Assembly: GCF_004114935.1 (NCBI RefSeq)
Contig: NZ_CP022221.1
Location: 2,377,001-2,441,000, forward strand
Reading direction: 5' to 3'
Length of the DNA stretch: 64,000 nt
DNA from: Bradyrhizobium zhanjiangense
GTDB taxonomy: Bacteria > Pseudomonadota > Alphaproteobacteria > Rhizobiales > Xanthobacteraceae
Shown: positions 7,362 to 63,334 of the stretch, piece after piece
How the letters are laid out: each line of letters opens with the position of its first letter
Numbering within the stretch: position 1 is the stretch's first letter
The notes under the pieces: model-generated
What the model was told of the DNA's origin: nothing
The model's input: only the letters and a program-made list of their open reading frames with translations
Database searches by the model: none
Translations under genes and position numbers: made by a program

Positions 7362-7732
7362 ATGCGATACGATCGAGTAGACGCCCAAATGCTCGAGATT
7401 GTGCAAAAGAACGACCGCCTAACTTCCGAGGTGCTCGGCGAAATGGCCGGGCTTTCTGCTACCGCCCTGTCAAGACGATTGAAGAGGCGCTCCGCTCAGA
7501 GGGCATCATCGAAGCCGACGTCTCAATCGTCTCGCCGAAGGCGGTGGGAAGACCTATTCAAATGCTTGTGCTGGTCACCCTGGAGCGGGAGCGCGCCTCC
7601 CTTGCGAAATCGATCCTATCCGCCATTGCTACAAGCTGCGTTAGGGCGGCGGCAGTCCTAGACACGAGATCTTGCCGGATCGGCTCGCATGACCAAGCGC
7701 TCACCCACAAGGATTTCGTGTCCAACTTCTGA
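7362..7732 (+). pseudogene. Lrp/AsnC-family transcription regulator, frameshifted
   Basis: The N-terminus MRYDRVDAQMLEIVQKNDRL with GEMAGLSATALSRRLKR is the winged helix-turn-helix of Lrp/AsnC proteins (compare the usual pattern LDRIDRKIL..LSPTPCLRRVKRL). Near 7484 the frame breaks. A one-base shift restores IEEALRSEGIIEADVSIVSP and AVGRPIQMLVLVTLERERAS, the linker and start of the ligand-binding (RAM) domain. The product stops at about 123 residues, shorter than the usual 150-165, so the RAM domain is also truncated. Its stop codon lies inside the NifA-type site that serves the next gene. Confidence 0.75.
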
Positions 7733-7734
7733 CA
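7719..7734 (+). promoter_or_regulatory. NifA upstream activator site (TGT-N10-ACA)
   Basis: TGTCCAACTTCTGACA is an exact match to the NifA enhancer consensus TGT-N10-ACA. It is centred about 110 bases before the -24/-12 element, within the normal working distance. Confidence 0.65.
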
Positions 7735-7830
7735 CGGGACAAAGTCCGTCAGGTTCAAAACACCGGCTGCGTTTGGGGCGCCTTGGAGTTTTCAAAGCGT
7801 AGTCAGGCGCTTGATGCGTGCTGACCGAGG

Positions 7831-7846
7831 TGGCACGGCTGTTGCT
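7831..7846 (+). promoter_or_regulatory. Sigma-54 (RpoN) -24/-12 promoter
   Basis: TGGCACGGCTGTTGCT matches the RpoN consensus TGGCACG-N4-TTGCW at every defined base, with the required 10-base spacing between GG and GC. Transcription should start near 7858, about 145 bases before the thioredoxin/TPR gene. Confidence 0.8.
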
Positions 7847-8002
7847 ATTGGGATGCAGAAACACGGAGTGAGGGCTGAGCGCACACCAGATGCGCAAAGC
7901 GAGTGATGCTCTCCTTCTCTTGAACCCGTGTGCTCCGTTTCTGAGAGAGACAGGCTAGCGCATAAAGTCGCGCAATGAGTGGCAATAGTTTTGGAGAGCA
8001 AC

Positions 8003-9187
8003 ATGGTGCTGCGCATGGAGTCCCCAGCTCCTCCGATCAAGGTGGAGAACTGGCTGCGCGGCGAGCCCCTCACGAGCTTCCAGCCCGGGAAGGTGTACAT
8101 CGTCGAATTTTGGGCAACTTGGTGCGGACCATGTGCGGCAGTGATGCCTCATCTAGTACAGCTGCAAGAGAAATACAAAGACAGCGGACTTGAGCTGCTC
8201 GGCGTCGCAGCTTACGAACGAGCTCCAACGGCGGACGAGGCCCGAACAAGCTTGGACGCGTGGTTGACCGACAAGTTCTCGAACCTGAACTATCGGATCG
8301 GGTTCGACTCCACAGGCGAAATGAGCAAGCTTTGGATGGAGTCCAGCTTTTCTGTCGGGATTCCCACCTCGTTCGTCGTTGACCGTGACGGCCACATCGC
8401 CTTTATCGGTCCTCCGATGCAGCTCGATGACGTCTTGCCGAAAGTTCTTAACGGCAGCTGGCGGACCAGCGATGAAGCTAAAGCCGCCGATACAGAGCGG
8501 ATCGACAGCGGAAGACGCGAAATGCGCGAAATGAAGCGTAAGCGGGCGCTGACTGAGCCGATTCTCGCCAAGCTTTCGCCGGCGATGAAGGCGGAGGATT
8601 GGGCAAAGGCGGTTTCGGCGGTCGAAGAGGCCGTCGCGGTGATGCCGGACGACCTCAACTTCCGCGCGCTCCATGCGGATCTATTGCTTCACAGGCTGCG
8701 CAACTTGCAGACCGGCTTGCCGGTTATGAGGCAATTCGCTCGCGACGCGATCGACAAAAACGATGAGCAGTGGATGGAAGGGGCGCTGCGCCAACTCTTT
8801 GATCCGGCGAATGACAACTCCCACTTCCCGTCTGCCGAGCGCCTTGCGATGGGCAAAGAGTTGTCCGAACACATTCTTGCGCTGAATCCTCCGCAAGGGG
8901 ACGGTGACTTCAAGTACCTGTCCTATGGGGCGGTCGCTCAGTATTATTACGAGAGCGGCAACAAGGATCGCGCAATCGAATTGGTCGAGGTGGCGTTGAA
9001 CTCGCTAGGCGGTCCTGAGCCTATCTCCGACGAACTGAAACAGGACGTCATGTCGACGTTGGTCGAAGCGCTGGCCAACTACAAGGGTGAGAAGGCTTGC
9101 TATGGGACGGTTTGTGCAACTCCGCAAGACGGATTTCCGAGAGCGTCAAAGCGCAGGCAACGAAGCAAACAACATAAAGAAGGGTGA
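8003..9187 (+). CDS. Thioredoxin-fold (TlpA/ResA-like) protein with C-terminal helical repeats
   Basis: The N-terminal 150 residues form a redoxin domain. VYIVEFWATWCGPCAAVMP carries the active-site CGPC (Cys41 and Cys44 from this start) and GIPTSFVVDRDGHIAFIGPP carries the cis-proline region. After a charged linker, residues about 175-370 are alpha-helical and TPR-like (EDWAKAVSAVEEAVAVMPDD; YYYESGNKDRAIELVEVAL). I chose the ATG at 8003 because GGAGAG lies 4-9 bases upstream; an in-frame GTG at 7979 is less likely. No signal peptide or membrane anchor is seen, so it is probably cytoplasmic. An exact sigma-54 promoter and NifA site upstream imply expression under symbiotic or microaerobic nitrogen-fixing conditions. 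The last 25 residues are basic and atypical, possibly from a late frameshift. Confidence 0.85.
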   Translation: MVLRMESPAPPIKVENWLRGEPLTSFQPGKVYIVEFWATWCGPCAAVMPHLVQLQEKYKDSGLELLGVAAYERAPTADEARTSLDAWLTDKFSNLNYRIGFDSTGEMSKLWMESSFSVGIPTSFVVDRDGHIAFIGPPMQLDDVLPKVLNGSWRTSDEAKAADTERIDSGRREMREMKRKRALTEPILAKLSPAMKAEDWAKAVSAVEEAVAVMPDDLNFRALHADLLLHRLRNLQTGLPVMRQFARDAIDKNDEQWMEGALRQLFDPANDNSHFPSAERLAMGKELSEHILALNPPQGDGDFKYLSYGAVAQYYYESGNKDRAIELVEVALNSLGGPEPISDELKQDVMSTLVEALANYKGEKACYGTVCATPQDGFPRASKRRQRSKQHKEG

Positions 9188-13075: not shown

Positions 13076-13387
13076 TCAGTCTCTCAGGTAATTGAGCATA
13101 CTGTTGCAGGCGTCCTCGGCCTCAGCGAAGCTCCGCAGCGGCGAGCCGTGCACCCTGATCGAGCCACGGCTCTGGTCAAGCGGACGCCACGAAGCGACGT
13201 AGCCGAACCTTCCGCGAAAGCCAGGACCGGTCGGGCTCTGCAAGCTTATAACGAACGAGTAGCCGCCGCTGCGTGCACTCCAAATTTCCATGTTTTCGAC
13301 TGCGCGGTGGAACTGCAGGGGCATCACGCACCGTTCGCCTGGGCAACCCGACAATGAAATTCTTCCGGCGGACTCACTGGCGTACAA
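13076..13387 (-). CDS. Small hypothetical protein next to the epimerase
   Basis: The frame opens at a TTG (103 codons); an ATG at 13324 (MPLQFHRAVENMEIW, 82 codons) is a likely alternative start. The body (SGGYSFVISLQSPTGPGFRG, FGYVASWRPLDQSRGSIRVH) is beta-rich and ends in a helix (FAEAEDACNSMLNYLRD). It starts only about 12-75 bases after the epimerase and is on the same strand, so it probably belongs to the same transcript. Role unknown; a RiPP accessory function is only a guess from position. Confidence 0.5.
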   Translation of the reverse strand: MYASESAGRISLSGCPGERCVMPLQFHRAVENMEIWSARSGGYSFVISLQSPTGPGFRGRFGYVASWRPLDQSRGSIRVHGSPLRSFAEAEDACNSMLNYLRD

Positions 13388-13398
13388 AATCCGAAACT

Positions 13399-14890
13399 CT
13401 AACCGCTGCCGGATGAAAGCGCAGTAACAGGTAAGCTGGTCTGCCAGGCGAAGCTGTCGTCTAAGTCTTCTTCAATCACCCCGGCCGCGTATAACTGATC
13501 GAGCAGGTCGGCTACTGCGAGCACGCTCGCTCCGTCAGTCGTGACCTGCCTAACCAGCTCCGACGCTGTGCAGTTGCCGTAGGCGATTAGATGGCCAACG
13601 GAAGTCGGAGCGATGTCGTCCAGCACCCGGTGTTCCATGTTGCGTGAGCGGAGATGAAAGCAATCGCTTCCCAGCCTTGTATTGCAGGTCCCTGCGGAAG
13701 CGGATCGGCAATTTGGGAGCTGGACTCTCGAGCATATGCTGGTCGATCATGCGCTGCAGCCCGTTGCGGAACTCGTCAGGCGTCCTGAAGAAGCGTTCAC
13801 TCAAGACGCGGTAGCCGAGCGGCCAGCGTTTGCTACCCGGCACCGGCGTCACCAATTGTAAACGTCCCTGCAGCATATTTACGAGAAAGCCGAACACACA
13901 GGCAATCGTCGTGTGATCGCCCTCCAGCAAAGCGATTGCATCATCCTTGTTAGCGGTCCTAAGTTTCTCGCTCCGCTCGCGCGCGCGCGCCCAGCAAAAG
14001 CCTTTGCAGTCAGCGCCTCCTTGCCCTGCAGGACGAGTTCGACATCCATCAGCTCCTCAGGCGAAAACGCCATGTGAATCTGGTCGAGATGTGTTGTGCT
14101 CAGCACAGAGAAACGATTCGTCACGGTCCGATAGCGCTTGAACAGTTGGAGCACGCGCTTGGTGAGTGCGCGATCCTTGAGCGGGGCCGCCGTCGTTGTT
14201 TGGGGCAATGCGCCCGTGATCTGATAGTAGTCGAATAGAAAGCGGTCGTAGTGTGGGTTGTCCATAGGCTCTGTGGCCCAGTAGCAGAAACCAGTACGGG
14301 CTGCCGAACCAAACATCTCGCGTGTGATACCGACCACGCCGCGCCAAAGCGCTGCATGCTCTTCGCTATATTCGTAATAGCCTTTGAAACGCTCGGCCGA
14401 GAGGCCGCAGAACCAGCAACCGACGGTGCAGCCGTCGCTCAGCTCGAAAGCGATGATGGGGTACGTGACCGAGGCCGCCGTTCCGCCCAATTCGTCGTTG
14501 CAGCGCCGGATTTGGCGCTCACGCCAAGCATGAAAGCGAGGGTTGATCGTCGACATTTCGCCCTCTTCGCGCAGGAGGTCGCGATGGCGCAACATCTCGC
14601 AGATAAACTCGTCCCACATCATAGCGAGGGGCCAGGGCGTAGACTCCGGCTTAAAGCGGTGTTTCAGGTAGCCGCCGCGCCAGAGCGGCAGCATCTTCAT
14701 TGGGTCAACTTCGATGCCGTAGCGCTCTGTTACCGCTCGAGGAATCAACGTTCTCCGAAAGCGCCCTGCGGAACTCCAAGTCACCAGCCAGCCGCTCCAT
14801 GAAGCGCTTGACGTGTGACAACGTGCGCAGTTGCTCGGGGGTACGCCGGTCAAAAATCTGTCGGCAGTGTTCGGTGGCAGTGTGCGTCAT
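13399..14890 (-). pseudogene. PoyD-like radical SAM peptide epimerase, frameshifted
   Basis: Read across three frameshifts, the minus strand encodes one protein of about 495 residues. The N-terminus is HVKRFMERLAGDLEFRRALS. After a shift near 14730, the main frame holds AFELSDGCTVGCWFCGLSAE, whose Cx3Cx2C motif binds the radical SAM iron-sulfur cluster, then GFCYWATEPMDNPHYDRFLF and GALPQTTTAAPLKDRALTKR. A second shift in a GC-dinucleotide run (about 13979-13990) leads to LLEGDHTTIACVFGFLVNML and GSKRWPLGYRVLSERFF. A third near 13650 leads to MEHRVLDDIAPTSVGHLIAY and the stop at 13399. The CWFCG signature and layout fit RiPP-maturation amino-acid epimerases (PoyD family), which turn L- into D-residues in a precursor peptide. 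A Nif11-type precursor lies 120 bases upstream. Family assignment is from memory of the motif, not a search. Confidence 0.7.
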
Positions 14891-15011
14891 ACGGTACGGG
14901 TGCGCCCTGAAGCCGCATCTCTAGGCCTGAAAGCAATGATCTCACTCCTGACGAGGCGTGCTTTCAGTTCTCTTCGCACCGGATCGTCGACGAGCCAGAA
15001 CTAAAAATATG

Positions 15012-15386
15012 TCATGCCGCGACGGCGACAACAACTACAATAAGTAAAACGATAGCGACTAGGTCACGGCCCGCTTCCGCGGCTTGCACGGCCCTCGTGG
15101 GTGCCTCCGACGTTGAACTAGCCAACGCTGAGGTATGCACAATCCTGCTCAAGCCCGCACCGCTCAAATCCTGCTTGGCGCCGACAATCGCGTCGAGCTG
15201 CATCAGCTCGTGTCGGCCTGGCACTCGGATGCAGCTCCTAACCTCGTCAAGCGTGAAATCGTAGCCGTGGCTCTTTCCGACCGCTACAATCGGTGCAAGA
15301 CCTGTAGCACTCTGCTTAAGGTTTTCGAGCAGACTACCCTCTTTTGCTAGATTCTTGACAAACCGTTCTACCTCAGCCTGCGACAT
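15012..15386 (-). CDS. Nif11-type RiPP precursor peptide
   Basis: 124 residues. Residues 1-70 match the Nif11 leader pattern: MSQAEVERFVKNLAKEGSLL, then SHGYDFTLDEVRSCI, then a terminal LDAIVGA resembling the usual double-glycine-type processing site. Residues 71-124 would be the core. They are Ser/Thr/Ala-rich and end in VAIVLLIVVVVAVAA, the beta-branched hydrophobic tail that PoyD-type epimerases act on in known systems. The ATG follows AGAGG by 7 bases, and a sigma-54-like promoter lies about 71 bases upstream. Alternatively the hydrophobic tail could be a membrane anchor, but the combination of leader and adjacent epimerase favours a RiPP. No transporter or protease gene was found nearby. 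Confidence 0.75.
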   Translation of the reverse strand: MSQAEVERFVKNLAKEGSLLENLKQSATGLAPIVAVGKSHGYDFTLDEVRSCIRVPGRHELMQLDAIVGAKQDLSGAGLSRIVHTSALASSTSEAPTRAVQAAEAGRDLVAIVLLIVVVVAVAA

Positions 15387-15456
15387 AGCCGGGCCTCTGC
15401 TAAATGTTGCTACCTATCCGTCGCCTTGGAAGCGATCGGTGACGACGCCGTAACAA

Positions 15457-15472
15457 AGCAATCCGCATACCA
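15457..15472 (-). promoter_or_regulatory. Sigma-54-like promoter of the RiPP precursor
   Basis: On the minus strand TGGTATGCGGATTGCT fits TGGYAYR-N4-TTGCW with correct GG-N10-GC spacing. It would start transcription about 60 bases before the precursor ATG. A perfect TGT-N10-ACA site was not found upstream; CGT-N10-ACA at about 15515-15530 is one mismatch away. Confidence 0.55.
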
Positions 15473-16635
15473 AACTGAAATTGCTGCTTTCGCGCTTTGT
15501 CTGACCGTGCGTATCGTCAACTTGCCGACATTGGTCTCTCTAACAAGCGCTCTGTACAGCGGGATGAAATCTCGTTGTGGGTAGCTAATCCAGCAGCGCA
15601 AGCGGTCGCCATCTACAAAAGCTCGGTCAGAACCGTGCTCAGCAGCGTCTGTTCACGGATTAGAAACGGCGCGCATTCCGTCCAATGCGCCCGGTTCTGC
15701 GAGAGGCTGGAGGTGAAATCCCGCCGGCCTAGTCACCACACCATCCGTATCTTGGCGAATGGCAAGTGTACAACCGGGCGGTTCTGCACTTGTGTGCGGG
15801 ATGGCCGGCCACCGGGCCTGCGCCGCCGGCGGCAGTCTACGGCGGCTCGAGCGACCGACGAGGCGAGCATCTCCAGAAGAATCTGGCCGCCTTCGCGCCT
15901 GCATCCCGTACGCCGATCGCTACAGCGGGTTCGAACCGGTGTTCGACCGGCAGAAGTAGGTGCGGCCGATTACACCGGGTTTCGCATTGCCCATGCGCGG
16001 CGGGGCTTCTTCAAGCTGGCTAACATGGAGAAGAATGAAGTATTTTCTCTGCGGTATAGGCGGGGCCAGCACAGACTTCAACGAACCCGGTCATCGCGAC
16101 CAGGAAATTGGTCTTAGAGCATGCGTGTGCGCACAGCATGATGATGCATTGGTAGTCTGTTCAGTTGAAGAATCGTCCTCAGAGAGTGGATGGTGCGCGC
16201 CAAATTCGTATTCGCTTGGCCTCATATTCGTAAAGGGCGGAACAGGCTGCGCAACGTGCTGTCGACCGTACCGGACCAGTGTAGTGGGCAGGCAGCCTTG
16301 CTACCCTGGCTATATCGCGTGTCAATCGGCTAGGTGGTCGGCTGGCGAGCTGTTCAAATAACGAATTCACATTCGTTGACTGCATCCCCACAGCGGCAGG
16401 AAGTCGCAGTGGATCACCGTCTCCAATTAACGGCCAGTCGCGAGGAACGGGTTCATCAGGCGCGAATAAAGCTCAGGATCGTCAACCTGCCATCGATGAG
16501 TCGAGGCGATATCACATGGCTCCGGGCCCGCGCCGCCCCGTTTTCCGAGCTGCAGCCAACGCCATCGACTCCGATCGGTTCGATGCGACAGCATCGGGTC
16601 TGCGAACTAACGCGCGCCACCGCGTAACTACTGCA
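15473..16635. other. Region without a supported gene
   Basis: Frames on both strands are interrupted or have unlikely composition. A minus-strand stretch ending at 15410 (RCWISYPQRDFIPLYRALVR) may be the tail of a decayed gene. Nothing else could be assigned. Confidence 0.4.
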
Positions 16636-18359: not shown

Positions 18360-21300
18360 ATGGCGGGGCGCGTGTCTACGGAAAATCAATCAGGCGAAAA
18401 TGAGTCCGTGGAACGTCAACCGGTCAACGTGATCACGGCGATCGATCGACTTGCAGGATCGGATCCGGAGAGGGTTGCGCTGAGGTACGGCGCAGACGAA
18501 CTCACATATGAGGCGCTACGATTAAGATCGGATGCCCTTGCAAGGAACTTACGAGAGCAGGGCGCTCAAGGGGCGGTTGTCGGCTATTGGGGGGAGCGGG
18601 ACCTCGACTGGGCGACGGCGGTCGTCGCAATATTGAAAGCTGGATCAACGTACCTACCGCTCGATCCATCGTTACCGGCTTCCCGTACATCATTCATGAT
18701 CGAGCAGAGCCGCTGCGCTCTGGTGATTGGCCGAGACCAGCCGACTTCGCTGAGCCTATTGCAGGCGAGCAGCAAAGGCGCCACGCAATTCGTAGCGATA
18801 GCGGCGGCGCTGCGCCAGGGCCAGAGTTCGTCTGTGGTGCCATCGCCGAGCGAGGATGGACTCGCCTACATTCTGTTTACGTCTGGTTCGACGGGCCAGC
18901 CTAAGGGCGCAATGATTGAGCGCGGCGCCCTAAACAATCATTTGGCGGCCAAGATCGACGCTCTAAGTCTCACTCGGACGGATTGCGTCGCGCAAACCGC
19001 GTCGCATTGCTTTGATATCTCGCTGTGGCAGCTTCTGGCTGGGCTTTGCGTCGGAGCCTCTAGCGCGATCATTGATGATGCAACATTGAGATCGCCATTG
19101 TCCCTCCTCCAAGCAATTCAAGGAAGCGGCGCTGCGGTTATCCAATTCGTTCCGTCGATGCTGGCAGTGTTTGTTGAGTATCTGCAGTCGCTTACTTCGG
19201 CGGAGCGAGCTCTGGATGGTTTGCGGATTATTTCTACGGTCGGAGAACCGCTAACACCCGGATTGGCACGTGCGTGGCTTGGCTTATATCCCCGCGTCCC
19301 CATTCTCAATCACTACGGGCCGACCGAGTGCGCGGACGGCGTTACGCATCATCTGGTTTCCATGCCCCCTGCGCTGGCTGAGCCTTATGTGCCGATCGGC
19401 AGACCGATTCATAACGTTAAGGTTTACGTCGCCGACGGACTGCGGCTGTGCAACATGGGGGAGGTCGGCGAAATCTGTGTAAGCGGCGTTGGTGTCGCTG
19501 CCGGTTACGCCAATGACGATGTCCGCACCAAGGATGCCTTTGGGCCGAACCCGTTCTCAAACGACCCGTCGTTCCGGCGCCTATACCGGACAGGTGATCT
19601 TGGGCGCGTTCGTTCCGACGGGCTTCTGGAATGTCTCGGTCGACGGGATCGTCAGGTCAAAATTCGCGGGCACAGAATCGAGCTGGGAGAAATCGAAGCT
19701 CGTTTGTCCGCTCATCCCTTGGTTCATGGCGCCGTCGCAGTCGCCTCTGTCTGTGCAGGTGTAAAGCTTACGGCGCGAGATATAGCTGGGTCGGACGCGC
19801 AAGCCGAATCGCGGCGACTGATTGCGTATGTGTCGGCTCCAGCTGAACTGGCGGAAAGCGAGCTCCAGAACTTTCTTGCGGAGGCGCTTCCCAGCTACAT
19901 GCTCCCAGAAAGAATCATCCACGTCAGCGGTATTCCACTGACCAGGAACGGAAAGGTCGATTTTGGAGCGTTGCCCGACCCGGGCAGTGTTCGTCCTCCG
20001 TTGGCAACGCCATTCGAGGAGCCACAAACAGACCTCGAAGCCCGACTGCGTAAAATCTGGTCCGGCATTTTGCGCATTGAGAAGATTGGTGTGAATGACC
20101 AGTTCATAAGCCTCGGCGGAGACTCGCTGCGGGCAATGCTCATATTGGGACAGTTGCAGACTCTGCTCGGGGTGAAAGCGGATTTCAGGATGGTCCTGAA
20201 TGGGACGATTCGGTCTCTTGCCGCTTCGATCGCGGCTCCAGCCGATTCCAAGCCCTGCACAGCCCTGACGTACGGAAGGCCCAGCCGATCGCCTCTGACG
20301 CGAGTTCAGGAGCACCTATGGTTTCTCTCTCAGCTCGATCCATCTGCCAGGAACTACATCATTCAAGGCGGCCTGCGGATTAAGGGAAACATCGATTTAG
20401 CTCGGTTCAATCGCGCCTGGACCGAGGTCATTCATTCCCACCAGGCACTTTCGGCGCGCTTTATCGACGAAGACGGTCCGGTTCAATGCTTTGATGCCCC
20501 GCCATGCACCAATCTTGAATTGATCGATGCATCTCATCTCACCTCCTCCGAGGCTGAGGAGCTCATCGCACAGTTTCGGCGAACGGAGCTGAAAGACAAT
20601 TTCGATCTCGGACAGGGCCACTTGTTTCGCGCGCGCATGGTCCGGCTTGGTCCTGACAATCATCTCATATTGATCACCGCTCACGAAATCATCCTCGATG
20701 CTTGGTCGATTTCTGTGCTCCTCAGAGATCTTCAGCAAAGATACGTAGATGCCGTGGCGTTTTGCCCAGAGAACCGTGCGTCACTCTCGGGCTATGCGGC
20801 GTGGGAAACACAACACGTTCCGCCAGAGGCGCTGGAGAGCCAACGTCACTATTGGCGTCGTCAGATTGGTGATGATCCACCGGTGCTTTCGCTTGGAAGA
20901 GCGCGCCCGCAAACAAATTCATACCGCGGCGGCTCGCATCCAGTGCTGCTTGGCAGCAATCTATCCAGTCGGGTAAGAGAATTCGCGCGCCGGAATGGCT
21001 GCACCACGTCGACAACACTGCTGGCGTGCTTCCAGCTGCTGCTACGAATGTATAGCGGTCAGGACGATATTGTCGTCGGCATGCCACACGCTGTACGGGA
21101 TCAACCTGGCAGCGCCGACATCATTGGCTTTTTCCTGAATATGCTGCCGATCCGTGCCGCGATCGATGCCGGTCAGTCCTTTGCTGTTCATGCCACGCGC
21201 ATCCAGGGCCTGGTCAGCGATGCCATCGCAAATTCGGCCTATCCATTCGGATGGATGGTCAGGGATACAAGGTTATGTCGCGAACCGGGTCGATCTCCGA

Positions 21301-24300
21301 TCTTCCAGGTCATGTTCAACATGTACTCCGAGGCCGCCGAACCCGTTGGTCGGGACGAGTTGGCTCTGACATTCCGCGAGTACGACACAGGCTATGTCAA
21401 ATTCGACCTAACATTGTACGCACAAGATCACGGCGATGAAATTGCGCTCCAGCTGGCGTATGCGGAAGACATATTTTCGAGTGATCTAGTTGTTCGCATG
21501 GCCAACAATCTGCGCTGTCTGATTGAGGCCTGCGTTGACAAACCGCTTGCGCCCATTGAGGAGCTGAGCTGCCTCAGCGCGTCAGACGTCACTCTACTGA
21601 ACTCGCTGGAGGGGGCCAGGCAGCCATATGAGTCAGAATGTCCGCTTGTTGAAGCCTTCGAGCAGATCAGTGTCTGCAATCACAGCAAGGTAGCATATTT
21701 TGGCGAGTTCGGGGAAGTCACATTCGGCCAGCTGCGTGAGCGCGTAGCAGCTATCAGGTCCTTCCTGCGGGATTTGGACCTGGGCGCTGGCGATATGGTC
21801 GCCATGCTGGTCGACCGGTCGCCTGACGTTGCCGCTGTTATGCTGGCGGCGCGAGCTTTGCACTCTATTGTCGTGCCGATACCGCCGGATTATCCGCCTG
21901 ATCGGATCCAACACATCCTGCGAGATAGTCAGGCAAAGGTGTTGGTTCACGCAAATACCACGGTGACTGGCTTTGACATACCTTCGATTTGTCTATTGAC
22001 GTTAGACAGGTGCAGGGCGCTGACGGATAATTTCGAATCCAGCGACTCACCCTCAGATCACCAAATTGCGAACCTTATATACACGTCGTCCTCAACAGGG
22101 CGGGCGAAGGGGGTTCTTATTCCGGAATCGGCCATTCTCAATCGGCTGAACTGGATGTGGCGACGCTTTCCTTTCGATAGTACCGACGTGATGGTTGTCC
22201 AGAAGTCCGCTTCCCTTGTTGCGTCCGCTTGGGAGTATTTTGGTGGGCTTCTGAGAGGTGTGCCCACGCTGATCCTCACCCAAGGGCAGGTGCTAGATCC
22301 GGATCTGTTGTTGTGCAGTTTGGCAAAACGTCGTGTGACACGCTTTTTTGCCTCTCCGCCAGTCCTGTCCGGTCTCATTGGGTCCCAGGAACGGCAACCG
22401 CAAAGGACCGCCTTGAGATTGGTCACAAGCAGCGCCGAACCGATGCCTTCCTCGCTGCCCGCTCGCTGGCGCGGGTCTTTTCCGGGCGTGCCGTTGTGGA
22501 ACTTCTATGGTGCGACGGAATGTGCGTCCAATGCAGCCGTGCACGAAACGTCGGATGCTGATGACAACTCGGCGCTTGTGCCGGTGGGGCGGCCAATCGA
22601 CAACGTCAAACTCTACGTGCTCGATCCACGATTGAAGAGAGTGCCTGTTGGAGCCCCCGGCGAACTGTGCATCGCGGGCCGCTGTCTCAGCGCTGGGTAC
22701 TGGCGGGATCAAGATCGGACTGACCGCTGTTTCGTGCCGAATCCGTATGATAGCGGACAATATAACGTGCTTTATCGAAGTGGGGACATCGCACGCATCT
22801 CGACCAGCGGCCTTCTCCAGATTTGCGGCCGATCGGACAACCAGATCAAGGTGAGGGGCTTTCGCATCGAGCCGGAGGAGGTCGAAGTTGCCCTTGAGTC
22901 TCATCCGGCGATCGCAAAGGCCGCGGTCTTCGCAGAAGGCATCGATGACGATCGCCGCTTGACGGCGAGCGTGGTGCCCGCTCGCAAGAATCTAAGCTCT
23001 GGAGAGATTCTCGCCCACCTGCGGAACAGATTGCCATCTCCCATGGTTCCCACAGCCTTCAGGTTGGTTGACAGTGTCCCCCTGACGACAAGCGGAAAGA
23101 TAGACCGTGCTCGCCTATCCTCCGTTCCTTACCGCGAGATAGAAACTAATCCATCTGCTGAGCCCCGCACCAGGAACGAGCGAGTTCTTGCTCGGATCTG
23201 GGAGGATCTATTAGGCGCCAAGGGGGTAGGAATCGACAGCAGTTTCTTTGATATCGGCGGCGATTCTCTTCTGAGCGTACGTTGCGTCACGCTGGCGCGC
23301 AAAGCCGGGCTGAATCTCAGCGTCAACCAGCTTTATCGAACACCGACCATCAGGGAGTTGGCGGCCGGGGAAGCGGAGGCGGCACCCCACAACGTGGCTT
23401 CCGCGGATGGCTTACTGCCTGTGCCCCCCGTAATATCGTTTTGGAATTCTCTTGTCGGCTTTGACGAGCATTTTAACATCGGCGATCTGTTCTTCTTGCG
23501 CGGCGGCATCCTGAACATCAAGATCCTGGACCGCGCTCTCGCCCATGTCATCGAGAGGCACGAAGGCCTCAGGCTCCGCGTTGCCAGAACCCAAGATGGA
23601 CTACGGCTGGGGATTGGGCCTTGTCCGGCCGAGCGCATCGTGGAGGAGATCGATCTCGTCCGGATGACCGGCCCAGACCAGCGCAGGACAATCGAGAGCG
23701 TCTCGGCAAGACGTCAACACATGTTTCGGTTTGACGGCCACACGCCTCTTATTCACGTCGCGGCCTTCCGTACTTCGGAAAGCGGCGATTACTATTTGCT
23801 GGTGTTGATGCATCATTTCGTAGCGGATGGGATGGGCTATCGGCTATTTCTGGAAGCATTGGAGGGCGCATACCACGCTCTTGCCGCAGGCCACGATGTG
23901 AATGGTCCCGAGACCGTACAAAGGCTCTCTCCCTGGTTGAAGCGCCTCGAGCACTACGCGAACAGCGAAGCACCAGACGAACTCAAGCACTGGGAGGACA
24001 TCGACTACGACCAATTCAACTTGCGTGTCAGCGACGCGTCATCGCGCGGCACGAGTGTTGCCGAAGGAAGCGCGAGAGAGTTTCACGATGCAAGTGTCGG
24101 AGGTCGTCGGGACGTTGCGAACGGCAGTTCGCTTTGTGTAAATCAGGCCAAGTACCATCTTGAGATCGACGGGGAAGCGACAGCGGGTCTCCTCAGTATT
24201 GGAGCCAGATCAGCGCATTGTCAGGACTTTGATGTGTTTCTTGCTGCCCTGTCCGGTGCGTTTGGCGCCCTGTTCGGAAACTATTCGCTCTGGATTGATA

Positions 24301-24830
24301 GCCTGACCTCGACACGAGGCCGGCTGTTTGACGATTTCGATTCATCTCAGATCATTGGTCTTCTCAGCGAGCTCGTTCCGCTTTCATTGAATGTCACAGG
24401 AACGGAGTCGCGTTCCGACCGTGCTCGTTTGATATACCGGCAGCGCAATGCGCTGCCGCGCGGGGGAATAGGCTTTCGGGCCCTGAAATTCCTAAACCGG
24501 GATCCAGCCGTGCGGTGTCGGCTTGATCGCCTGCCACTCCCCAGAATTGGGGTGAATTATCGCGCCCGTTTGCAGCGCCATTTCCCACGCCGTTTTCTAG
24601 ACACAGACCCTTATCCACTCTGGATCGGCGAACACATGCATCAAGCGGCGGCGATCCACGTCTTCTGGTTCGATGTCGGATATCAATCGGGCGATCTACA
24701 GATTGACATCACGTATGATCCGAGCATGGTCGATTATGAGGTGACCCGCCATCTTTGCACGGTCTTGCAACAGGAGCTGTTGCAGACGATCAATGAAATT
24801 CGGAAGATCTCGGGACACATTCATCCATGA
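18360..24830 (+). CDS. Dimodular non-ribosomal peptide synthetase (A-T-C-A-T-C)
   Basis: 2156 residues. Domain order with approximate residues: adenylation A1 22-535 (FTSGSTGQPKG near 173; FDISLWQ at 218; NHYGPTE at 317); carrier T1 (GGDS, Ser589); condensation C1 about 644-1080; A2 about 1115-1600 (TSSSTGRAKG at 1242); T2 (GGDS, Ser1636); terminal condensation C2 about 1680-2150 with intact HHFVADG at 1818. Oddities: C1 has HEIILDA at 775, so the catalytic second His is Glu776. A2 has LVASAWE at 1286 where FDxxxWE is expected, so the Asp that holds the alpha-amino group is Val1287, suggesting a non-alpha-amino substrate or an inactive domain. There is no thioesterase, so release may be by C2. 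The gene starts with an A domain, so the product is likely a short dipeptide-like molecule. The stop overlaps the MATE exporter start. Confidence 0.9.
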   Translation: MAGRVSTENQSGENESVERQPVNVITAIDRLAGSDPERVALRYGADELTYEALRLRSDALARNLREQGAQGAVVGYWGERDLDWATAVVAILKAGSTYLPLDPSLPASRTSFMIEQSRCALVIGRDQPTSLSLLQASSKGATQFVAIAAALRQGQSSSVVPSPSEDGLAYILFTSGSTGQPKGAMIERGALNNHLAAKIDALSLTRTDCVAQTASHCFDISLWQLLAGLCVGASSAIIDDATLRSPLSLLQAIQGSGAAVIQFVPSMLAVFVEYLQSLTSAERALDGLRIISTVGEPLTPGLARAWLGLYPRVPILNHYGPTECADGVTHHLVSMPPALAEPYVPIGRPIHNVKVYVADGLRLCNMGEVGEICVSGVGVAAGYANDDVRTKDAFGPNPFSNDPSFRRLYRTGDLGRVRSDGLLECLGRRDRQVKIRGHRIELGEIEARLSAHPLVHGAVAVASVCAGVKLTARDIAGSDAQAESRRLIAYVSAPAELAESELQNFLAEALPSYMLPERIIHVSGIPLTRNGKVDFGALPDPGSVRPPLATPFEEPQTDLEARLRKIWSGILRIEKIGVNDQFISLGGDSLRAMLILGQLQTLLGVKADFRMVLNGTIRSLAASIAAPADSKPCTALTYGRPSRSPLTRVQEHLWFLSQLDPSARNYIIQGGLRIKGNIDLARFNRAWTEVIHSHQALSARFIDEDGPVQCFDAPPCTNLELIDASHLTSSEAEELIAQFRRTELKDNFDLGQGHLFRARMVRLGPDNHLILITAHEIILDAWSISVLLRDLQQRYVDAVAFCPENRASLSGYAAWETQHVPPEALESQRHYWRRQIGDDPPVLSLGRARPQTNSYRGGSHPVLLGSNLSSRVREFARRNGCTTSTTLLACFQLLLRMYSGQDDIVVGMPHAVRDQPGSADIIGFFLNMLPIRAAIDAGQSFAVHATRIQGLVSDAIANSAYPFGWMVRDTRLCREPGRSPIFQVMFNMYSEAAEPVGRDELALTFREYDTGYVKFDLTLYAQDHGDEIALQLAYAEDIFSSDLVVRMANNLRCLIEACVDKPLAPIEELSCLSASDVTLLNSLEGARQPYESECPLVEAFEQISVCNHSKVAYFGEFGEVTFGQLRERVAAIRSFLRDLDLGAGDMVAMLVDRSPDVAAVMLAARALHSIVVPIPPDYPPDRIQHILRDSQAKVLVHANTTVTGFDIPSICLLTLDRCRALTDNFESSDSPSDHQIANLIYTSSSTGRAKGVLIPESAILNRLNWMWRRFPFDSTDVMVVQKSASLVASAWEYFGGLLRGVPTLILTQGQVLDPDLLLCSLAKRRVTRFFASPPVLSGLIGSQERQPQRTALRLVTSSAEPMPSSLPARWRGSFPGVPLWNFYGATECASNAAVHETSDADDNSALVPVGRPIDNVKLYVLDPRLKRVPVGAPGELCIAGRCLSAGYWRDQDRTDRCFVPNPYDSGQYNVLYRSGDIARISTSGLLQICGRSDNQIKVRGFRIEPEEVEVALESHPAIAKAAVFAEGIDDDRRLTASVVPARKNLSSGEILAHLRNRLPSPMVPTAFRLVDSVPLTTSGKIDRARLSSVPYREIETNPSAEPRTRNERVLARIWEDLLGAKGVGIDSSFFDIGGDSLLSVRCVTLARKAGLNLSVNQLYRTPTIRELAAGEAEAAPHNVASADGLLPVPPVISFWNSLVGFDEHFNIGDLFFLRGGILNIKILDRALAHVIERHEGLRLRVARTQDGLRLGIGPCPAERIVEEIDLVRMTGPDQRRTIESVSARRQHMFRFDGHTPLIHVAAFRTSESGDYYLLVLMHHFVADGMGYRLFLEALEGAYHALAAGHDVNGPETVQRLSPWLKRLEHYANSEAPDELKHWEDIDYDQFNLRVSDASSRGTSVAEGSAREFHDASVGGRRDVANGSSLCVNQAKYHLEIDGEATAGLLSIGARSAHCQDFDVFLAALSGAFGALFGNYSLWIDSLTSTRGRLFDDFDSSQIIGLLSELVPLSLNVTGTESRSDRARLIYRQRNALPRGGIGFRALKFLNRDPAVRCRLDRLPLPRIGVNYRARLQRHFPRRFLDTDPYPLWIGEHMHQAAAIHVFWFDVGYQSGDLQIDITYDPSMVDYEVTRHLCTVLQQELLQTINEIRKISGHIHP

Positions 24831-26224
24831 ATGAGCCCGATGCGGAATTCGCCGCCGAGGCCGATCACGATGTGATGCCGAACAAGAACCCGCGCATCGA
24901 TCTATCAGACCCCAGTCTGTTCAGACTTATCCTGCGGCTCGCCATTCCGTCGGTTGTTGGCCTGTCGATCAATGCGTTGCAGCAGGTTGTCAACGCGATC
25001 TTTGTTGGCACACTCGGCGCGCAGGCAATCGCAGCTGTCAGCATGACCTTGCCGATCGTGGTCATGCTCGCGGCGGCCGGACAGGGGATAGGTGTTGGAG
25101 CAGCGTCGTTCATATCTCGTCATCTTGGTGCTGGTGAGTACCTGGAGGCGAGTCGAGGCGCCAGTACCGCTCTCGCGCTCGCCGCGCCAGTCGGCATCAC
25201 GGTCGCAGTCGCTCTGTTTCTAAACATGCGAGAGATCTTCCTAGCGCTCGGGGCAACTCCAACCATCATGCCCCTGGCGCTCGACTACGCGACGACACTT
25301 TTGTTCGGATGCACCCTGATGCTTCTGAATATCGTCAACGGCTTCATCGTCCGAGCCGAAGGCAACACACGATTCAGCATGTGGACGATGATGACCGCCT
25401 TCATACTGAACGCTGGCCTTGATCCGGTGCTCATATCCGTGCTGAACCTCGGTGTGCGAGGCGCCGCTCTCGCAACGCTTGTGTCTCAAACTGCGGCCAT
25501 TAGCCTCTATATCGCGTATTTTACCAAGCGACGCGGAATGGTTCTCGTCAGGATGTCTCACATCTCGTTGCGAGCAGATCGCATCAGACAGATCGCGCTC
25601 GTGGGGGCGCCAGCGACCATGACCAGCATCTTATCTGCTATTGCCGTTATGCTCTTGTACGGAGCAGCTGCGCCCTTCGGCGAAGAGTCCATCGCGGCCG
25701 TGGGAATAGCCGTGCGAATCTTAACAATTGGCGCACTGCTTATCAGCGGTTTCTGTATGGGTTCTCAAGCTATCCTGGGTTTTGGCTGGGGCGCACGCGA
25801 TTTTTCTCGTGTACTGAGGGCTGCAAAAGTCTTGCTCTCTATGACTGTCGCTCTTTCGGTGACATATTCCGCCGGCGTTGTGATTTTTGCCCGACCTTTG
25901 GTCAGGCTGTTCAGTGATAGCGATAACGTCAGGGAAATTGCCGTTTCTGCCTGCACTGTCTTCCATCTGTTTTTTGGACTGTATGGTATTGAGAGTGTCG
26001 TCACGGCGATGCTTCAATCGCTTGGCAGAGCGCGTCTCAGCGTGGTTGTGTGTTTCGCGAGGCATTATCTCTTCATTCCGGCTGCACTGTTGTTCCCTGC
26101 CATATCGGGCTTTAGCGGAGTGTTGGCCAGTCAAGCCATTGCTGAGCTGGGCGCCGGAATGATCGCGCTGTTTGTCATGTTCCGCCAGTTCGCTGAGCTC
26201 AGACAAGGGGACCGGTACATTTAG
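24827..26224 (+). CDS. MATE-family efflux transporter
   Basis: 465 residues with about twelve hydrophobic segments in the pattern of MATE (multidrug and toxic compound extrusion) transporters, which export small molecules against a sodium or proton gradient. Typical stretches: LAIPSVVGLSINALQQVVNA, FVGTLGAQAIAAVSMTLPIV, and in the second half FCMGSQAILGFGWGARDF. The ATG overlaps the NRPS stop (ATGA), so the two are translationally coupled. The neighbour strongly suggests it exports the NRPS product. The N-terminal 20 residues are acidic and cytoplasmic. Gene looks intact and full length. Confidence 0.9.
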   Translation: MNEPDAEFAAEADHDVMPNKNPRIDLSDPSLFRLILRLAIPSVVGLSINALQQVVNAIFVGTLGAQAIAAVSMTLPIVVMLAAAGQGIGVGAASFISRHLGAGEYLEASRGASTALALAAPVGITVAVALFLNMREIFLALGATPTIMPLALDYATTLLFGCTLMLLNIVNGFIVRAEGNTRFSMWTMMTAFILNAGLDPVLISVLNLGVRGAALATLVSQTAAISLYIAYFTKRRGMVLVRMSHISLRADRIRQIALVGAPATMTSILSAIAVMLLYGAAAPFGEESIAAVGIAVRILTIGALLISGFCMGSQAILGFGWGARDFSRVLRAAKVLLSMTVALSVTYSAGVVIFARPLVRLFSDSDNVREIAVSACTVFHLFFGLYGIESVVTAMLQSLGRARLSVVVCFARHYLFIPAALLFPAISGFSGVLASQAIAELGAGMIALFVMFRQFAELRQGDRYI

Positions 26225-30220: not shown

Positions 30221-31108
30221 ATGAGTGGAACAATTGCTGTTGAAAATGTCATTTCGCGAGCAGACATCGTCAAGCACGCGGACCGGCTTGGGGCCGAAAT
30301 CAAGAACATTGCGCTGTCGGACGATTTGCCTGACGATGTCATCGTAGCGTTCAACCGGCTTCTGCTAGAGCATAAGGTCATCTTCTTCCGTGATCAGGGA
30401 CATCTCGACGATGCACAGCAGCAGCGTTTTGTGCTTCGGCTCGGCTCGCTGATACCGAATCCCACAATCGCGGACACAATGGGCGGTTTAACGATCCGGC
30501 AGGAGCTGTCTGATCGCGCCTGCAGTCATCTCAACCAGATGAACGATGAGCGGGTCCCCACAGCCATTTCGGTGCTGCGGCTCGCAGCGGTCCCGCCTTT
30601 TGGCGGCGACATTGCTTGGTCGAGCAGGGCGGCCGCTTATCTTGATCTTCCCGATCCCCTGCGGATGCTCGCAGATAACCTCTGGGCTGTGAGCTTCGTC
30701 GCATCTGATCTCACTGCGACAGAGAAGGCCACCGAAGCCAACAAGCGGCATTGGTGCGGCGTATCCACTGGAACGATCTACGAAACCACACATCCGGTTG
30801 TTCGTGTTCATCCCGAGACCGGCGAACGCATGCTATCGCTCGGTCGTTCAGTGAACAACTTCGTCGGCCTGCAGCGCTACCCCAGCCAAAGACTGTTTGA
30901 ACGGCTGCAGTCCTATCTCACCGCCCCGCAGAACACCCTGTGCTGGAACTGGAAATCAGGCGACGTGACAATCTGGGACAATCGCGCGACTGAGCCGCAC
31001 CCCGTGAACAAAATCGGCAGTCCTCACTGGGTCATGGACCAGCTTGCGATTGACGTCGGCGTACCGAACGTGAACGGGCCAAAATCAAGGGCCGCAAAGG
31101 CTGCCTGA
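30221..31108 (+). CDS. TauD/TfdA-family dioxygenase-like protein with altered iron ligands
   Basis: 295 residues; AGAGG lies 8 bases before the ATG. TauD-family landmarks: HADRLGAEIKNIALSDDLPD (N-terminal), LLEHKVIFFRDQGHLDDAQQ, VLRLAAVPPFGGDIAWSSRA, HPVVRVHPETGERMLSL and GDVTIWDNRATEPHPVNKIG. Family members are Fe(II)/2-oxoglutarate oxygenases with an HxD...H iron triad. Here the HxD position reads HLN (His103, Asn105), and the distal His (His260) sits in RATEPH, one residue later than in the usual RATQH. The Arg of the 2-oxoglutarate site cannot be placed with certainty. The enzyme may be inactive or may bind metal differently, as in halogenases that lack the carboxylate ligand (those have Ala or Gly there, not Asn). 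Single gene; possible tailoring role for the NRPS product is inference. Confidence 0.75.
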   Translation: MSGTIAVENVISRADIVKHADRLGAEIKNIALSDDLPDDVIVAFNRLLLEHKVIFFRDQGHLDDAQQQRFVLRLGSLIPNPTIADTMGGLTIRQELSDRACSHLNQMNDERVPTAISVLRLAAVPPFGGDIAWSSRAAAYLDLPDPLRMLADNLWAVSFVASDLTATEKATEANKRHWCGVSTGTIYETTHPVVRVHPETGERMLSLGRSVNNFVGLQRYPSQRLFERLQSYLTAPQNTLCWNWKSGDVTIWDNRATEPHPVNKIGSPHWVMDQLAIDVGVPNVNGPKSRAAKAA

Positions 31109-35451: not shown

Positions 35452-36546
35452 ATGGAAACAGCAGCTAATCCGCTGAATTGCAGAGCACGCGTGTTGAAGT
35501 TCATTGAAGAAACCCGCGTCGTTAGCGAGAGTGAACTGCAAGTCAACAACATCACACCTTATCATGTCACAAAGTCTTATCGCGAACAGATCATCAAAAG
35601 CGGTTACTACGATCAGCTGAAGTACATTGTCGAGCCCTCAGTCAAGGAGTTCGAAAGCCCAGGCACCTTAGATACGAGCGGCGAGCACGACAACACGGTC
35701 GTGCCGGGGCTCCAGCACAAGTACGCTCAGACCGGTTTATTGCTGGTGACGGAACGCTGCGGCTCATATTGCCGTTACTGTTTTCGCAAGCGCATTGTGG
35801 GCAAGGTTTCGGATGAAATCGCACCGGACTTCCATCAGGCCGCGCAATATATTGCGCGCCATTCTGAGATGACGAACGTACTCCTTTCCGGAGGCGACCC
35901 GTTCGTGCTCAGGACCGCAAATCTGAGCAAGATCGTTGACCACCTGCTGCCAATAAATCATTTGAATTCGATCAGATTTGGCACAAAAATGCTGGCCTAT
36001 GAGCCAAGGCGGTTTGAAGATTCCGCTCTACCAACGCTATTCCAGCGTATCCACAAGGCGGGTAAAACCCCAATCATCGTCACGCATTTCGATCACGTAG
36101 GTGAGATCTCATCCGACGCGGAGCACAAAGTTCGCAGTTTGCGAGCACAGGGCGTGCAGTTCCTTAATCAGTCCGTGCTTCTCGCCAAAGTCAACGATGA
36201 TCCCGAAATATTGGCCGCGACCTTCGCCAAATGCCACGAAATCGGAGTGCGACCTTACTACTTATTTCAAGCAAGGCCGGTGAAGGGTGCATCGCACTTC
36301 CAAGTCGCACTTCGGCGCGGACTAGAAATTGTACGCGGCATCAACCAACGTCTGAGCGGGATCGAGAAGACATTTAAATACATCATGTCCCATTACACAG
36401 GAAAAATAGAGATATTGGACTTAGGACAGGATGGCCGCGTGTATATGCGATACCACCAGAATAAAGTTCCCGAAAAGATCGGTAAGATCTTTTCCCGACC
36501 GCACGTCGCGACAGCCTGTTGGCTTGATGATCTGCCCGCACAATGA
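35452..36546 (+). CDS. KamA-family radical SAM aminomutase (lysine/glutamate 2,3-aminomutase-like)
   Basis: 364 residues; GAGG precedes the ATG by 6 bases. ERCGSYCRYCFRKRIVG holds the radical SAM cluster motif Cx3Cx2C (Cys103, Cys107, Cys110). Other KamA landmarks: NVLLSGGDPFVLRTANLSKI, FGTKMLAYEPRRFEDSALPT, QGVQFLNQSVLLAKVNDDPE and RPYYLFQARPVKGASHFQVA. SHYTGKIEILDL aligns with the PLP-lysine region GGGGK of lysine 2,3-aminomutase, with the Lys kept. Members move an amino group from C2 to C3, giving beta-lysine or another beta-amino acid. It is shorter than the classical 416-residue enzyme, mainly at the C-terminus. Substrate cannot be told from sequence. IS66 sits about 100 bases upstream and may have replaced its native promoter. 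Confidence 0.85.
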   Translation: METAANPLNCRARVLKFIEETRVVSESELQVNNITPYHVTKSYREQIIKSGYYDQLKYIVEPSVKEFESPGTLDTSGEHDNTVVPGLQHKYAQTGLLLVTERCGSYCRYCFRKRIVGKVSDEIAPDFHQAAQYIARHSEMTNVLLSGGDPFVLRTANLSKIVDHLLPINHLNSIRFGTKMLAYEPRRFEDSALPTLFQRIHKAGKTPIIVTHFDHVGEISSDAEHKVRSLRAQGVQFLNQSVLLAKVNDDPEILAATFAKCHEIGVRPYYLFQARPVKGASHFQVALRRGLEIVRGINQRLSGIEKTFKYIMSHYTGKIEILDLGQDGRVYMRYHQNKVPEKIGKIFSRPHVATACWLDDLPAQ

Positions 36547-59830: not shown

Positions 59831-59839
59831 ATGCGCAGC

Positions 59840-60700: not shown

Positions 60701-60817
60701 CTGGGTCTCCTGTCTTGAGAGGGGTGGTGCGAAGACCAACATCCTCTCAGACAGGACACCTCAGTTCACCAGGCTTGCCCCCACTCCCGCGTAGCGGGTT
60801 CGTTCAATACTGGAGGG

Positions 60818-60875
60818 TTCAAATAGGTCCCGCGTCACAGATCTCGCCGCAAGTCCAGCGCGGGACCTATTTGAA
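60818..60875 (+). repeat. Inverted repeat at the IS91 end, copy 2
   Basis: Same 17-bp arms and spacer as at 58291-58348. Confidence 0.7.
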
Positions 60876-61162
60876 GCTGGATTGAACGAAGCCGCGTCTT
60901 GTGAGCGCGGACCTATGGGGGTTCGATCTAGGCGCCGGTAGCGCGATTGACCCGATGTCGGGCCCGCGAGCGAGTGTGGCCGCAGATTGTCGCTGATGTT
61001 GGCAGCAAAGGATGCCGCCGTCGATAGCGTCGAACGGCGCGTCAAGCCCAGGCGGCTGACTATCGCCCGTTCGGCGGGCGTTGTGAGCGTGCTTGATCGT
61101 TCCGACGGAGAACGTCGGCAGGGCAGCGCGTGCAGTGGGAGCGGACAAGTCGAGGTCGTCGG

Positions 61163-62356: not shown

Positions 62357-62365
62357 ATGCGCAGC

Positions 62366-63225: not shown

Positions 63226-63334
63226 CTGGGTCTCCTGTCTTGAGAGGGGTGGTGCGAAGACCAACATCCTCTCAGACAGGACACCTCAGTTCACCAGGCT
63301 TGCCCCCACTCCCGCGTAGCGGGTTCGTTCAATA

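What the first reader, a model, noticed from the sequence alone, without database searches (positions are those of the whole stretch)
13076..15472. RiPP locus: Nif11-type precursor with a V/A/I-rich core next to a PoyD-like radical SAM epimerase
The minus strand holds a 124-residue peptide with a Nif11 leader (MSQAEVERFV..., GYDFTLDEV, LDAIVGA) and a core ending VAIVLLIVVVVAVAA, followed by a radical SAM protein with CTVGCWFCG and the layout of peptide epimerases. This predicts a D-amino-acid-containing hydrophobic peptide in a rhizobial symbiosis island, where I know of no described product. Two small unknown genes follow on the same strand and may be accessory factors.
Basis: partly seen in the sequence, partly recalled or inferred. 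Interest (0 to 1): 0.88.

Follow-up and report, generated by a model that had tools for sequence, protein, structure and literature searches.

The report
Nodule peptide locus with broken epimerase
Root-nodule bacteria carry a little-noticed gene pair that should make a peptide with mirror-image amino acids, and the pair looks tied to the nitrogen-fixing state; in this particular strain the peptide gene is intact but the enzyme gene is broken.

Summary
The precursor is real: window 15012-15386 (-) has a Nif11 leader over Pfam's cut-off, and its Val-rich tail is under purifying selection. The next gene is a PoyD-type epimerase (TIGR04517), but in this Bradyrhizobium it lies in four ORFs with three frame breaks, so it is probably a recent pseudogene. 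Intact copies exist in close relatives. The two small genes proposed as accessory factors are not supported.

The locus belongs to a family in rhizobia. Its epimerases form one branch and occur in 47 rhizobial plasmid records; all 28 epimerase-positive genomes of the genus carry nodC. Sixteen of 29 loci read add a B12-radical SAM C-methyltransferase. A sigma-54 promoter precedes the precursor here and in 28 of 55 rhizobial upstream regions. Published tables list precursors of this family in nodule bacteroids and one that falls in an rpoN mutant, without naming the system.

Best reading: a sigma-54 (probably NifA)-controlled, nodule-expressed, Nif11-led epimerised RiPP, crippled in this strain. 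Product and role are unknown. Public records annotate the genes one by one; my searches found no paper describing the system.

The parts
15012..15386 (-). Nif11-type precursor peptide, 124 aa; leader about residues 1-70 (ends VGA, where six close relatives have VGG), core about residues 71-124 with the Val-rich tail 108-124
   Evidence: Pfam Nif11 34.3 bits over cut-off; alignment A1 of 29 precursors; pN/pS 0.31 overall and 0.13 in the tail. The leader/core boundary is inferred from the GG/GA motif.
15457..15472 (-). sigma-54 (-24/-12) promoter TGGTATGCGGATTGCT, about 70 bp before the precursor start
   Evidence: one of two matches to TGGYNYRN4TTGCW in 64 kb, 0.54 expected, 12 of 100 shuffles reach two; the evidence for function is its conservation upstream of relatives
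15515..15530 (-). possible NifA upstream activator site, TGT-N10-ACG (one mismatch to TGT-N10-ACA)
   Evidence: aligned with an exact TGT-N10-ACA site in Sinorhizobium americanum L036; weak: exact sites are no commoner in the window than chance (9 against 7.1), and the spacing to the promoter is short
14705..14890 (-). epimerase piece 1 (residues 1-50 of the intact relative)
   Evidence: TIGR04517 18.4 bits, positions 1-29; 98% identical to L046
13879..14853 (-). epimerase piece 2 (about residues 51-304) with the radical SAM motif CTVGCWFC
   Evidence: TIGR04517 365.6 bits, positions 16-279; 92% identical to L046
13550..13930 (-). epimerase piece 3 (residues 321-409) with the invariant Cys in the IACVFGF stretch, a candidate H-atom donor
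   Evidence: TIGR04517 101.3 bits, positions 298-383; 92% identical to L046; the Cys is invariant in 49 of 49 epimerases
13399..13638 (-). epimerase piece 4 (residues 418-485, C-terminal part)
   Evidence: TIGR04517 28.7 bits, positions 392-446; 96% identical to L046
13076..13387 (-). 103-aa ORF, judged not part of the RiPP system
   Evidence: conserved in close relatives but also on Bradyrhizobium and Nitrobacter plasmids, the Nitrobacter copy near a cellulose-synthase gene; pN/pS 0.53-0.58, weak coding signal

Best explanation
This is one member of a rhizobial family of RiPP loci, in a form crippled in this strain. In the family, a sigma-54 RNA polymerase, most likely activated by NifA in the low-oxygen nodule, transcribes a Nif11-led precursor and the PoyD-type radical SAM epimerase behind it. 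The epimerase abstracts alpha-hydrogens in the Val/Ala-rich core and returns a hydrogen from a conserved cysteine to give D residues, probably at alternate positions. In many strains a B12-radical SAM enzyme then C-methylates the core, and a few also encode a GNAT or an NHLP exporter. The leader is probably removed after the GG/GA motif. In this strain the promoter and precursor are intact but the epimerase reading frame has broken, probably recently, so an unepimerised precursor, or nothing functional, is expected. Shown by computation: the families, the breaks, the promoter motif and the distribution. Shown in papers: precursor proteins in bacteroids, and lower expression of one member in an rpoN mutant (free-living cells). 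Inferred: NifA as activator, D residues, C-methylation and leader cleavage. Unknown: the product's function.
For: Nif11 and TIGR04517 matches. Epimerase in 28 of 265 genomes of the genus; all 28 have nodC over the cut-off, as do 135 of the 265 overall (Fisher p about 2e-9, relatedness ignored). Epimerase relatives in 49 plasmid records at E up to 1e-20: 47 in Rhizobium, Sinorhizobium, Mesorhizobium or Aminobacter and 2 in cyanobacteria. Precursor relatives in 49 loci of the genome collection, 40 of them in Bradyrhizobium, Sinorhizobium/Ensifer, Mesorhizobium or Rhizobium; an epimerase follows in 37 of these 40, and in the other 3 the stretch ends within 290 bases of the matched part. 35 rhizobial epimerases form one branch, support 98/98. 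Neighbours: nifHDKE in R. etli, fixABCX-nifA in R. hidalgonense, nifS in NGR234. Strict sigma-54 motif in 28 of 74 distinct 150-bp upstream regions, 0 of 74 on the opposite strand, 0.0007 per shuffled 120-bp region; 28 of 55 rhizobial and 0 of 19 other regions. The promoter of the DOA9 precursor (L107) is the site printed for DOA9 nif11, listed as reduced in the rpoN mutant (PMC13207237, passages). MCHK_12735, the precursor of L040, is listed among M. huakuii nodule bacteroid proteins (PMC10454058, passages). pRL100099, a Nif11 protein, is listed among pea bacteroid proteins (PMC7105596, passages). Two Nif11 genes and an epimerase fall together with nif genes in abiEi-mutant nodules (PMC8436566, passage). 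TIGR03975 C-methyltransferase, 761.6 and 727 bits, present whole or in part in 16 of 29 rhizobial-type loci.
Against: No product has been seen. 27 of 55 rhizobial upstream regions lack the strict motif, among them R. leguminosarum-type, R. etli and one Bradyrhizobium group; one search recovers only a few, so control may differ between lineages. The NifA site in the window has a mismatch and short spacing, and exact NifA-type sites in the window are no commoner than chance. The rpoN result is from free-living cells, not nodules. The three frame breaks could be assembly errors. Precursor pN/pS does not show that the core is modified. No C-methyltransferase was found in this genome, and only general ABC transporters.
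Confidence: 0.75

Rival explanations
1. The epimerase of this strain is intact and the frame breaks are sequencing or assembly errors, so the strain makes the epimerised peptide.
For: The pieces are 92-98% identical to an intact relative, the precursor and promoter are intact, and one break lies near a run of alternating G and C.
Against: Three separate breaks lie in one 1.5 kb gene of a single-contig genome, while the nearby 2156-aa NRPS ORF is unbroken. Other copies in the genus are split in other ways in several genomes. The precursor has also lost the second Gly of its GG motif.
Confidence: 0.2
2. The Nif11 protein acts unmodified as a small nitrogen-fixation-related protein, and the epimerase is incidental.
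For: In two lineages with split epimerases (the window; L062/L063) the precursor ORF stays open. Papers list the protein with nif or regulatory genes.
Against: In loci fetched by the precursor alone, an epimerase follows in 37 of 40 rhizobial cases, the other 3 being cut by the stretch end. The Val-rich tail is more constrained than the leader (0.13 against 0.36), and S. meliloti has several tandem precursors before one epimerase.
Confidence: 0.15
3. The product is an antibacterial used in competition between rhizobia, with no symbiotic role.
For: A Mesorhizobium copy has an NHLP 'bacteriocin' exporter. Some copies sit on plasmids that may not be the symbiosis plasmid, such as S. meliloti pHRB800 (its accessory status is recalled, not tested).
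Against: Sigma-54 control and bacteroid expression point to expression in nodules. I did not search for immunity genes.
Confidence: 0.25

Closest known systems
Polytheonamide pathway (PoyA/PoyD/PoyC)
   Same: Radical SAM epimerase of the PoyD family and a hydrophobic core; many relatives of the window locus also have a radical SAM C-methyltransferase. PoyD epimerises every second residue and one strictly conserved cysteine is reported (PMC8326336, passages).
   Different: Nif11 leader instead of a nitrile-hydratase-like leader; nodule-type regulation; in this window no C-methyltransferase and a broken epimerase. Two non-cluster cysteines, not one, are invariant in the set aligned here.
Cyanobacterial PoyD-type proteusins (PlpD, OspD, AvpD pathways)
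   Same: Same epimerase type; the review reports epimerised Val and Ile in PlpA (PMC8326336, passages).
   Different: Different hosts and fewer epimerisations than polytheonamide; two cyanobacterial plasmid copies found here share 34-37% identity with the rhizobial epimerase. PlpD, OspD and AvpD themselves were not compared.
Selidamides (GNAT-modified proteusins)
   Same: Two Mesorhizobium loci (L040, L042) encode a GNAT beside the epimerase.
   Different: No GNAT was recognised in the window locus; acylation is untested (selidamides from PMC9505594, passages).
Epipeptides (EpeE)
   Same: Radical SAM epimerisation of Val/Ile in a short peptide.

Membership tests
Nif11-leader RiPP precursors | Nif11 domain at the N-terminus of a short peptide | tested here: met
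   Pfam PF07862 34.3 bits, cut-off 23.8
Nif11-leader RiPP precursors | NCBIfam leader_Nif11 (TIGR03798) over its curated cut-off | tested here: not met
   window 22.6 against 32.3 bits; of five relatives scanned, M. huakuii L040 passes (37.5) and four do not
Nif11-leader RiPP precursors | leader ends in a double-Gly cleavage motif | tested here: inconclusive
   VGA in the window, VGG in six close relatives, absent or altered in several others
PoyD-type epimerase (TIGR04517) | whole-length match over the cut-off | tested here: not met
   piece 2 alone passes (365.6 against 325 bits) but the gene is split over several frames
PoyD-type epimerase (TIGR04517) | CxxxCxxC motif and a further conserved catalytic Cys | tested here: met
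   encoded, but in different pieces; five Cys are invariant in 49 of 49 epimerases. Which of the two non-cluster Cys is PoyD Cys372 was not established.
PoyD-type epimerase (TIGR04517) | epimerises its precursor | not testable with these tools
   needs expression and D2O mass spectrometry
Proteusins | nitrile-hydratase-like leader | tested here: not met
   only Nif11 and weak unrelated matches in Pfam and NCBIfam; so not filed as a proteusin
NifA/sigma-54 regulon | -24/-12 promoter | tested here: met
NifA/sigma-54 regulon | TGT-N10-ACA upstream activator site | tested here: inconclusive
   one mismatch in the window; two exact sites in S. americanum L036; exact sites in the window no commoner than chance

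The most novel reading that the evidence does not exclude
Rhizobia make, under NifA/sigma-54 control inside nodules, a D/L-alternating and often C-methylated Val-rich peptide that folds as a gramicidin- or polytheonamide-like beta-helix and changes ion flow across the symbiosome or bacteroid membrane. Strains such as this one have switched it off by losing the epimerase, perhaps as a host-range adjustment.
Probability: 0.12. Interest if true: 0.92.

Novelty: new variant of a known kind. Interest (0 to 1): 0.62.

Why it matters
I found no paper that describes an epimerised RiPP of nodule rhizobia (searches listed under Tried and rejected). A conserved, nodule-expressed family that in several genera sits beside nif or fix genes would be a new class of symbiosis factor. 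It is directly testable, because unbroken copies lie in strains such as R. johnstonii 3841, NGR234 and M. huakuii. Repeated breakage of the epimerase with the precursor kept gives natural variants to compare.

Tried and rejected
Accessory genes: the 103-aa ORF was tested by relatives, codon statistics and neighbourhood, and dropped. The 84-aa and 262-aa ORFs are only partly matched or interrupted in relatives. C-methyltransferase elsewhere in this genome: none (the tool warns that an empty answer without a positive control shows nothing). Solved structures of the epimerase: none by sequence. The count of 73 plasmid records is not used for the RiPP, because its Bradyrhizobium and Nitrobacter records probably match only the region of the 103-aa ORF; one search replaces it. 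A Paraburkholderia NifA paper found by search has no Nif11 or RiPP passage, so it gives no support (PMC8305402, passages). The NifA-RpoN regulon paper of M. loti R7A (PMC3538637, passages) has no 'radical SAM' in its main text. nifH as a partner: 27 of the 28 epimerase genomes have a full match, G108 only a weak one. The offsets printed in the last lines are 6 bases too small; the part coordinates were read.

Novelty searches (open-licence PMC full text only): rhizobia+Nif11+epimerase, proteusin+rhizobi, PoyD/epimerase/OspD (20 of 30 listed), radical SAM+nodule+Bradyrhizobium+RiPP, Nif11+nodule, Rhizobium+polytheonamide, radical SAM+epimerase+rhizobi, Nif11+rhizobi, Nif11+proteusin (15 of 20 listed), six gene tags. 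No title or abstract start in these listings names the system; nearly all were seen only as listings, nine papers as passages, none whole.
Full report
What is there. The minus strand of the window holds a 124-aa ORF at 15012-15386 with a Nif11 leader over Pfam's curated cut-off (34.3 against 23.8 bits). NCBIfam's leader_Nif11 model matches below its cut-off (22.6 against 32.3). It is the only Nif11 match at E up to 0.001 in this 9.34 Mb single-contig genome. The last 17 residues are Val, Ala, Leu and Ile after one Asp, written with varied codons. Across seven copies, the window's included, pN/pS is 0.31 for the whole ORF, 0.36 for the leader and 0.13 for the tail, so the tail is kept as protein.

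The epimerase. Behind it lies a PoyD-type radical SAM gene (TIGR04517). One ORF passes the family cut-off by itself (365.6 against 325 bits), but the family's profile is spread over four ORFs. Against the intact copy of relative L046 the pieces cover residues 1-50, about 51-304, 321-409 and 418-485 at 92-98% identity: three frame breaks, probably recent. The radical SAM motif and a further invariant Cys (residue 203 of L046) fall in piece 2; another, in the IACVFGF stretch (residue 331), is in piece 3. All five Cys are invariant in 49 of 49 epimerases aligned. A review reports a single strictly conserved cysteine, Cys372, as donor in PoyD (PMC8326336, passages); which of my two matches it I did not establish. 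Of 28 genomes of the genus with a match, seven (G000, G012, G025, G027, G057, G094, G104) show only split copies; G052 and G088 have a split copy and a one-piece copy. In L063 the precursor ORF is open although the epimerase is split.

Small genes behind it. The 103-aa ORF at 13076-13387 is conserved in close relatives, but relatives also occur on 7 Bradyrhizobium plasmids, none of them among the epimerase-bearing plasmid records, and in Nitrobacter near a cellulose-synthase gene, with no epimerase in the 8.3 kb shown. Its pN/pS is 0.53-0.58. The next ORFs are only partly matched or interrupted in relatives. I do not count them as part of the system.

The family. Genomes of the genus: 28 of 265 have an epimerase match, and all 28 carry nodC over the cut-off, as do 135 of the 265 overall. 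A hypergeometric test gives 1.4e-9, ignoring relatedness. Three of the matched places (L032, L033 and an unlisted G112 copy; L059, L060 and L065 in the longer stretches) are a distant, 33-37% identical type; their genomes also hold the rhizobial type. Plasmids: 49 records hold an epimerase relative at E up to 1e-20, 47 in Rhizobium (24), Sinorhizobium (17), Mesorhizobium (5) and Aminobacter (1), and 2 in cyanobacteria. Genome collection: 49 loci hold a precursor relative; 40 are in Bradyrhizobium, Sinorhizobium/Ensifer, Mesorhizobium or Rhizobium, and 9 are elsewhere (two Microvirga, one Spiribacter, six metagenome bins). These were fetched by the precursor alone, so pairing can be tested on them: an epimerase follows in 37 of the 40 (in some it is split or cut), and in the other three (L071, L083, L085) the stretch ends within 290 bases of the matched part. 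Six of the 9 others also have one. In a tree of 44 epimerases (49 rows, 5 identical ones removed) 35 rhizobial ones form one branch, support 98/98; two epimerases of each Microvirga fall outside it.

Partners. A radical SAM C-methyltransferase (TIGR03975, 761.6 and 727 bits for two copies) lies behind the epimerase in 16 of 29 rhizobial-type loci, three of these in pieces or partial (32 loci L034-L065 minus the three distant ones). It was not found in the window's genome or in the stretches read of its closest relatives. A GNAT is whole in two Mesorhizobium loci; an NHLP exporter is present in one, cut by the end of the stretch, and in pieces in L035. S. meliloti loci have four tandem precursors, one truncated in L039. 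Neighbours include nifHDKE (R. etli), fixABCX-nifA (R. hidalgonense) and nifS (NGR234). In the window genome nifH and nodC lie on either side, about 240 and 430 kb away.

Control. A -24/-12 promoter lies at 15457-15472, one of two matches in 64 kb where 0.54 are expected; 12 of 100 shuffles reach two, so its weight rests on conservation. The strict form occurs in 28 of 74 distinct 150-bp upstream regions, on the opposite strand in 0 of 74, and in 0.0007 of shuffled 120-bp regions. Of the 74, 55 are rhizobial (28 with the motif) and 19 are not (0 with it); some of the 55 have a wrongly placed start. One search, a slightly looser pattern over 300 bp, was given 25 loci, most chosen because they had missed. 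It found the motif in W, L046 and L043 (already counted) and in L035, L040, L042, L048 and L079. It found none in 17: R. leguminosarum-type loci L037, L044, L045, L091 and L092, R. etli L038, Bradyrhizobium L054, L055, L061-L064, L089 and L095, Microvirga L094 and L097, and Spiribacter L105. The NifA site in the window is one mismatch off; S. americanum has two exact sites. Exact TGT-N10-ACA sites in the window number 9 where 7.1 are expected, so that motif alone is weak.

Evidence already in print, not named there as a RiPP system in the passages I saw. In Bradyrhizobium DOA9 a Nif11 gene is listed as reduced in the rpoN mutant, in free-living cells, with the site TGGCACGCTCCTTGC at -76 (PMC13207237, passages). 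That exact site ends 75 bases before the precursor of the DOA9 locus here. In M. huakuii nodule bacteroids the protein MCHK_12735 is listed, at ratio 0.50 in a hypE mutant (PMC10454058, passages); that tag is the precursor of L040. In pea bacteroids the Nif11 protein pRL100099 is listed (PMC7105596, passages); that it is the precursor of L037 is inferred from size and replicon. In M. huakuii nodules two Nif11 genes and an epimerase, listed on pMHa, fall along with nif genes in an abiEi mutant (PMC8436566, passage); which locus of mine they are was not established.

How it most likely works. Shown: the gene families, the breaks, the promoter motif and the distribution. From papers: bacteroid proteins, and lower expression of one member in an rpoN mutant. 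Inferred from the PoyD family: D residues, probably alternating, in the Val-rich core; in relatives with the methyltransferase, C-methylation; cleavage after GG/GA. For this strain I expect precursor without epimerisation. The function is unknown; a membrane-active beta-helix is the boldest reading and has no direct evidence here.

Novelty. Public records annotate the parts one by one. The searches listed under Tried and rejected found no paper that describes the rhizobial system. It is not filed as a proteusin because the leader is Nif11-type. I rate it a new variant of a known kind; the broken epimerase lowers the interest of this copy but not of the family.

Noticed in passing
window 7719-9187 (+): The other sigma-54 match in the window (7831-7846), with an exact TGT-N10-ACA site at 7719-7734, precedes a 402-aa thioredoxin/TlpA-like protein (below family cut-offs): a possible NifA target. 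A TlpA-family gene also lies near the S. meliloti RiPP locus L039.
   Followed up: partly
window 18360-26224 (+): A 2156-aa NRPS with two condensation, two AMP-binding and two carrier domains is followed directly by a MatE-family transporter. A TauD-type oxygenase (30221-31108), a radical SAM protein (35452-36546; KamA-like by recall) and a PhyH-type oxygenase (46337-47101) lie further on; whether they belong together was not tested.
   Followed up: partly
L039 6722-10506; L043 7361-11610: S. meliloti loci have four tandem Nif11 precursors before one epimerase, one of them truncated in L039; L043 also holds an epimerase fragment between precursors, which suggests amplification of the cassette.
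   Followed up: no
L112: A Rhodospirillaceae metagenome bin has nine Nif11-type precursor ORFs in one stretch, with an epimerase at 49% identity and a C-methyltransferase.
   Followed up: no
window 58637-63267: Two near-identical copies of a transposase-plus-integrase-like unit lie about 2.5 kb apart, start to start (the names are recalled from the sequence, not scanned).
   Followed up: no
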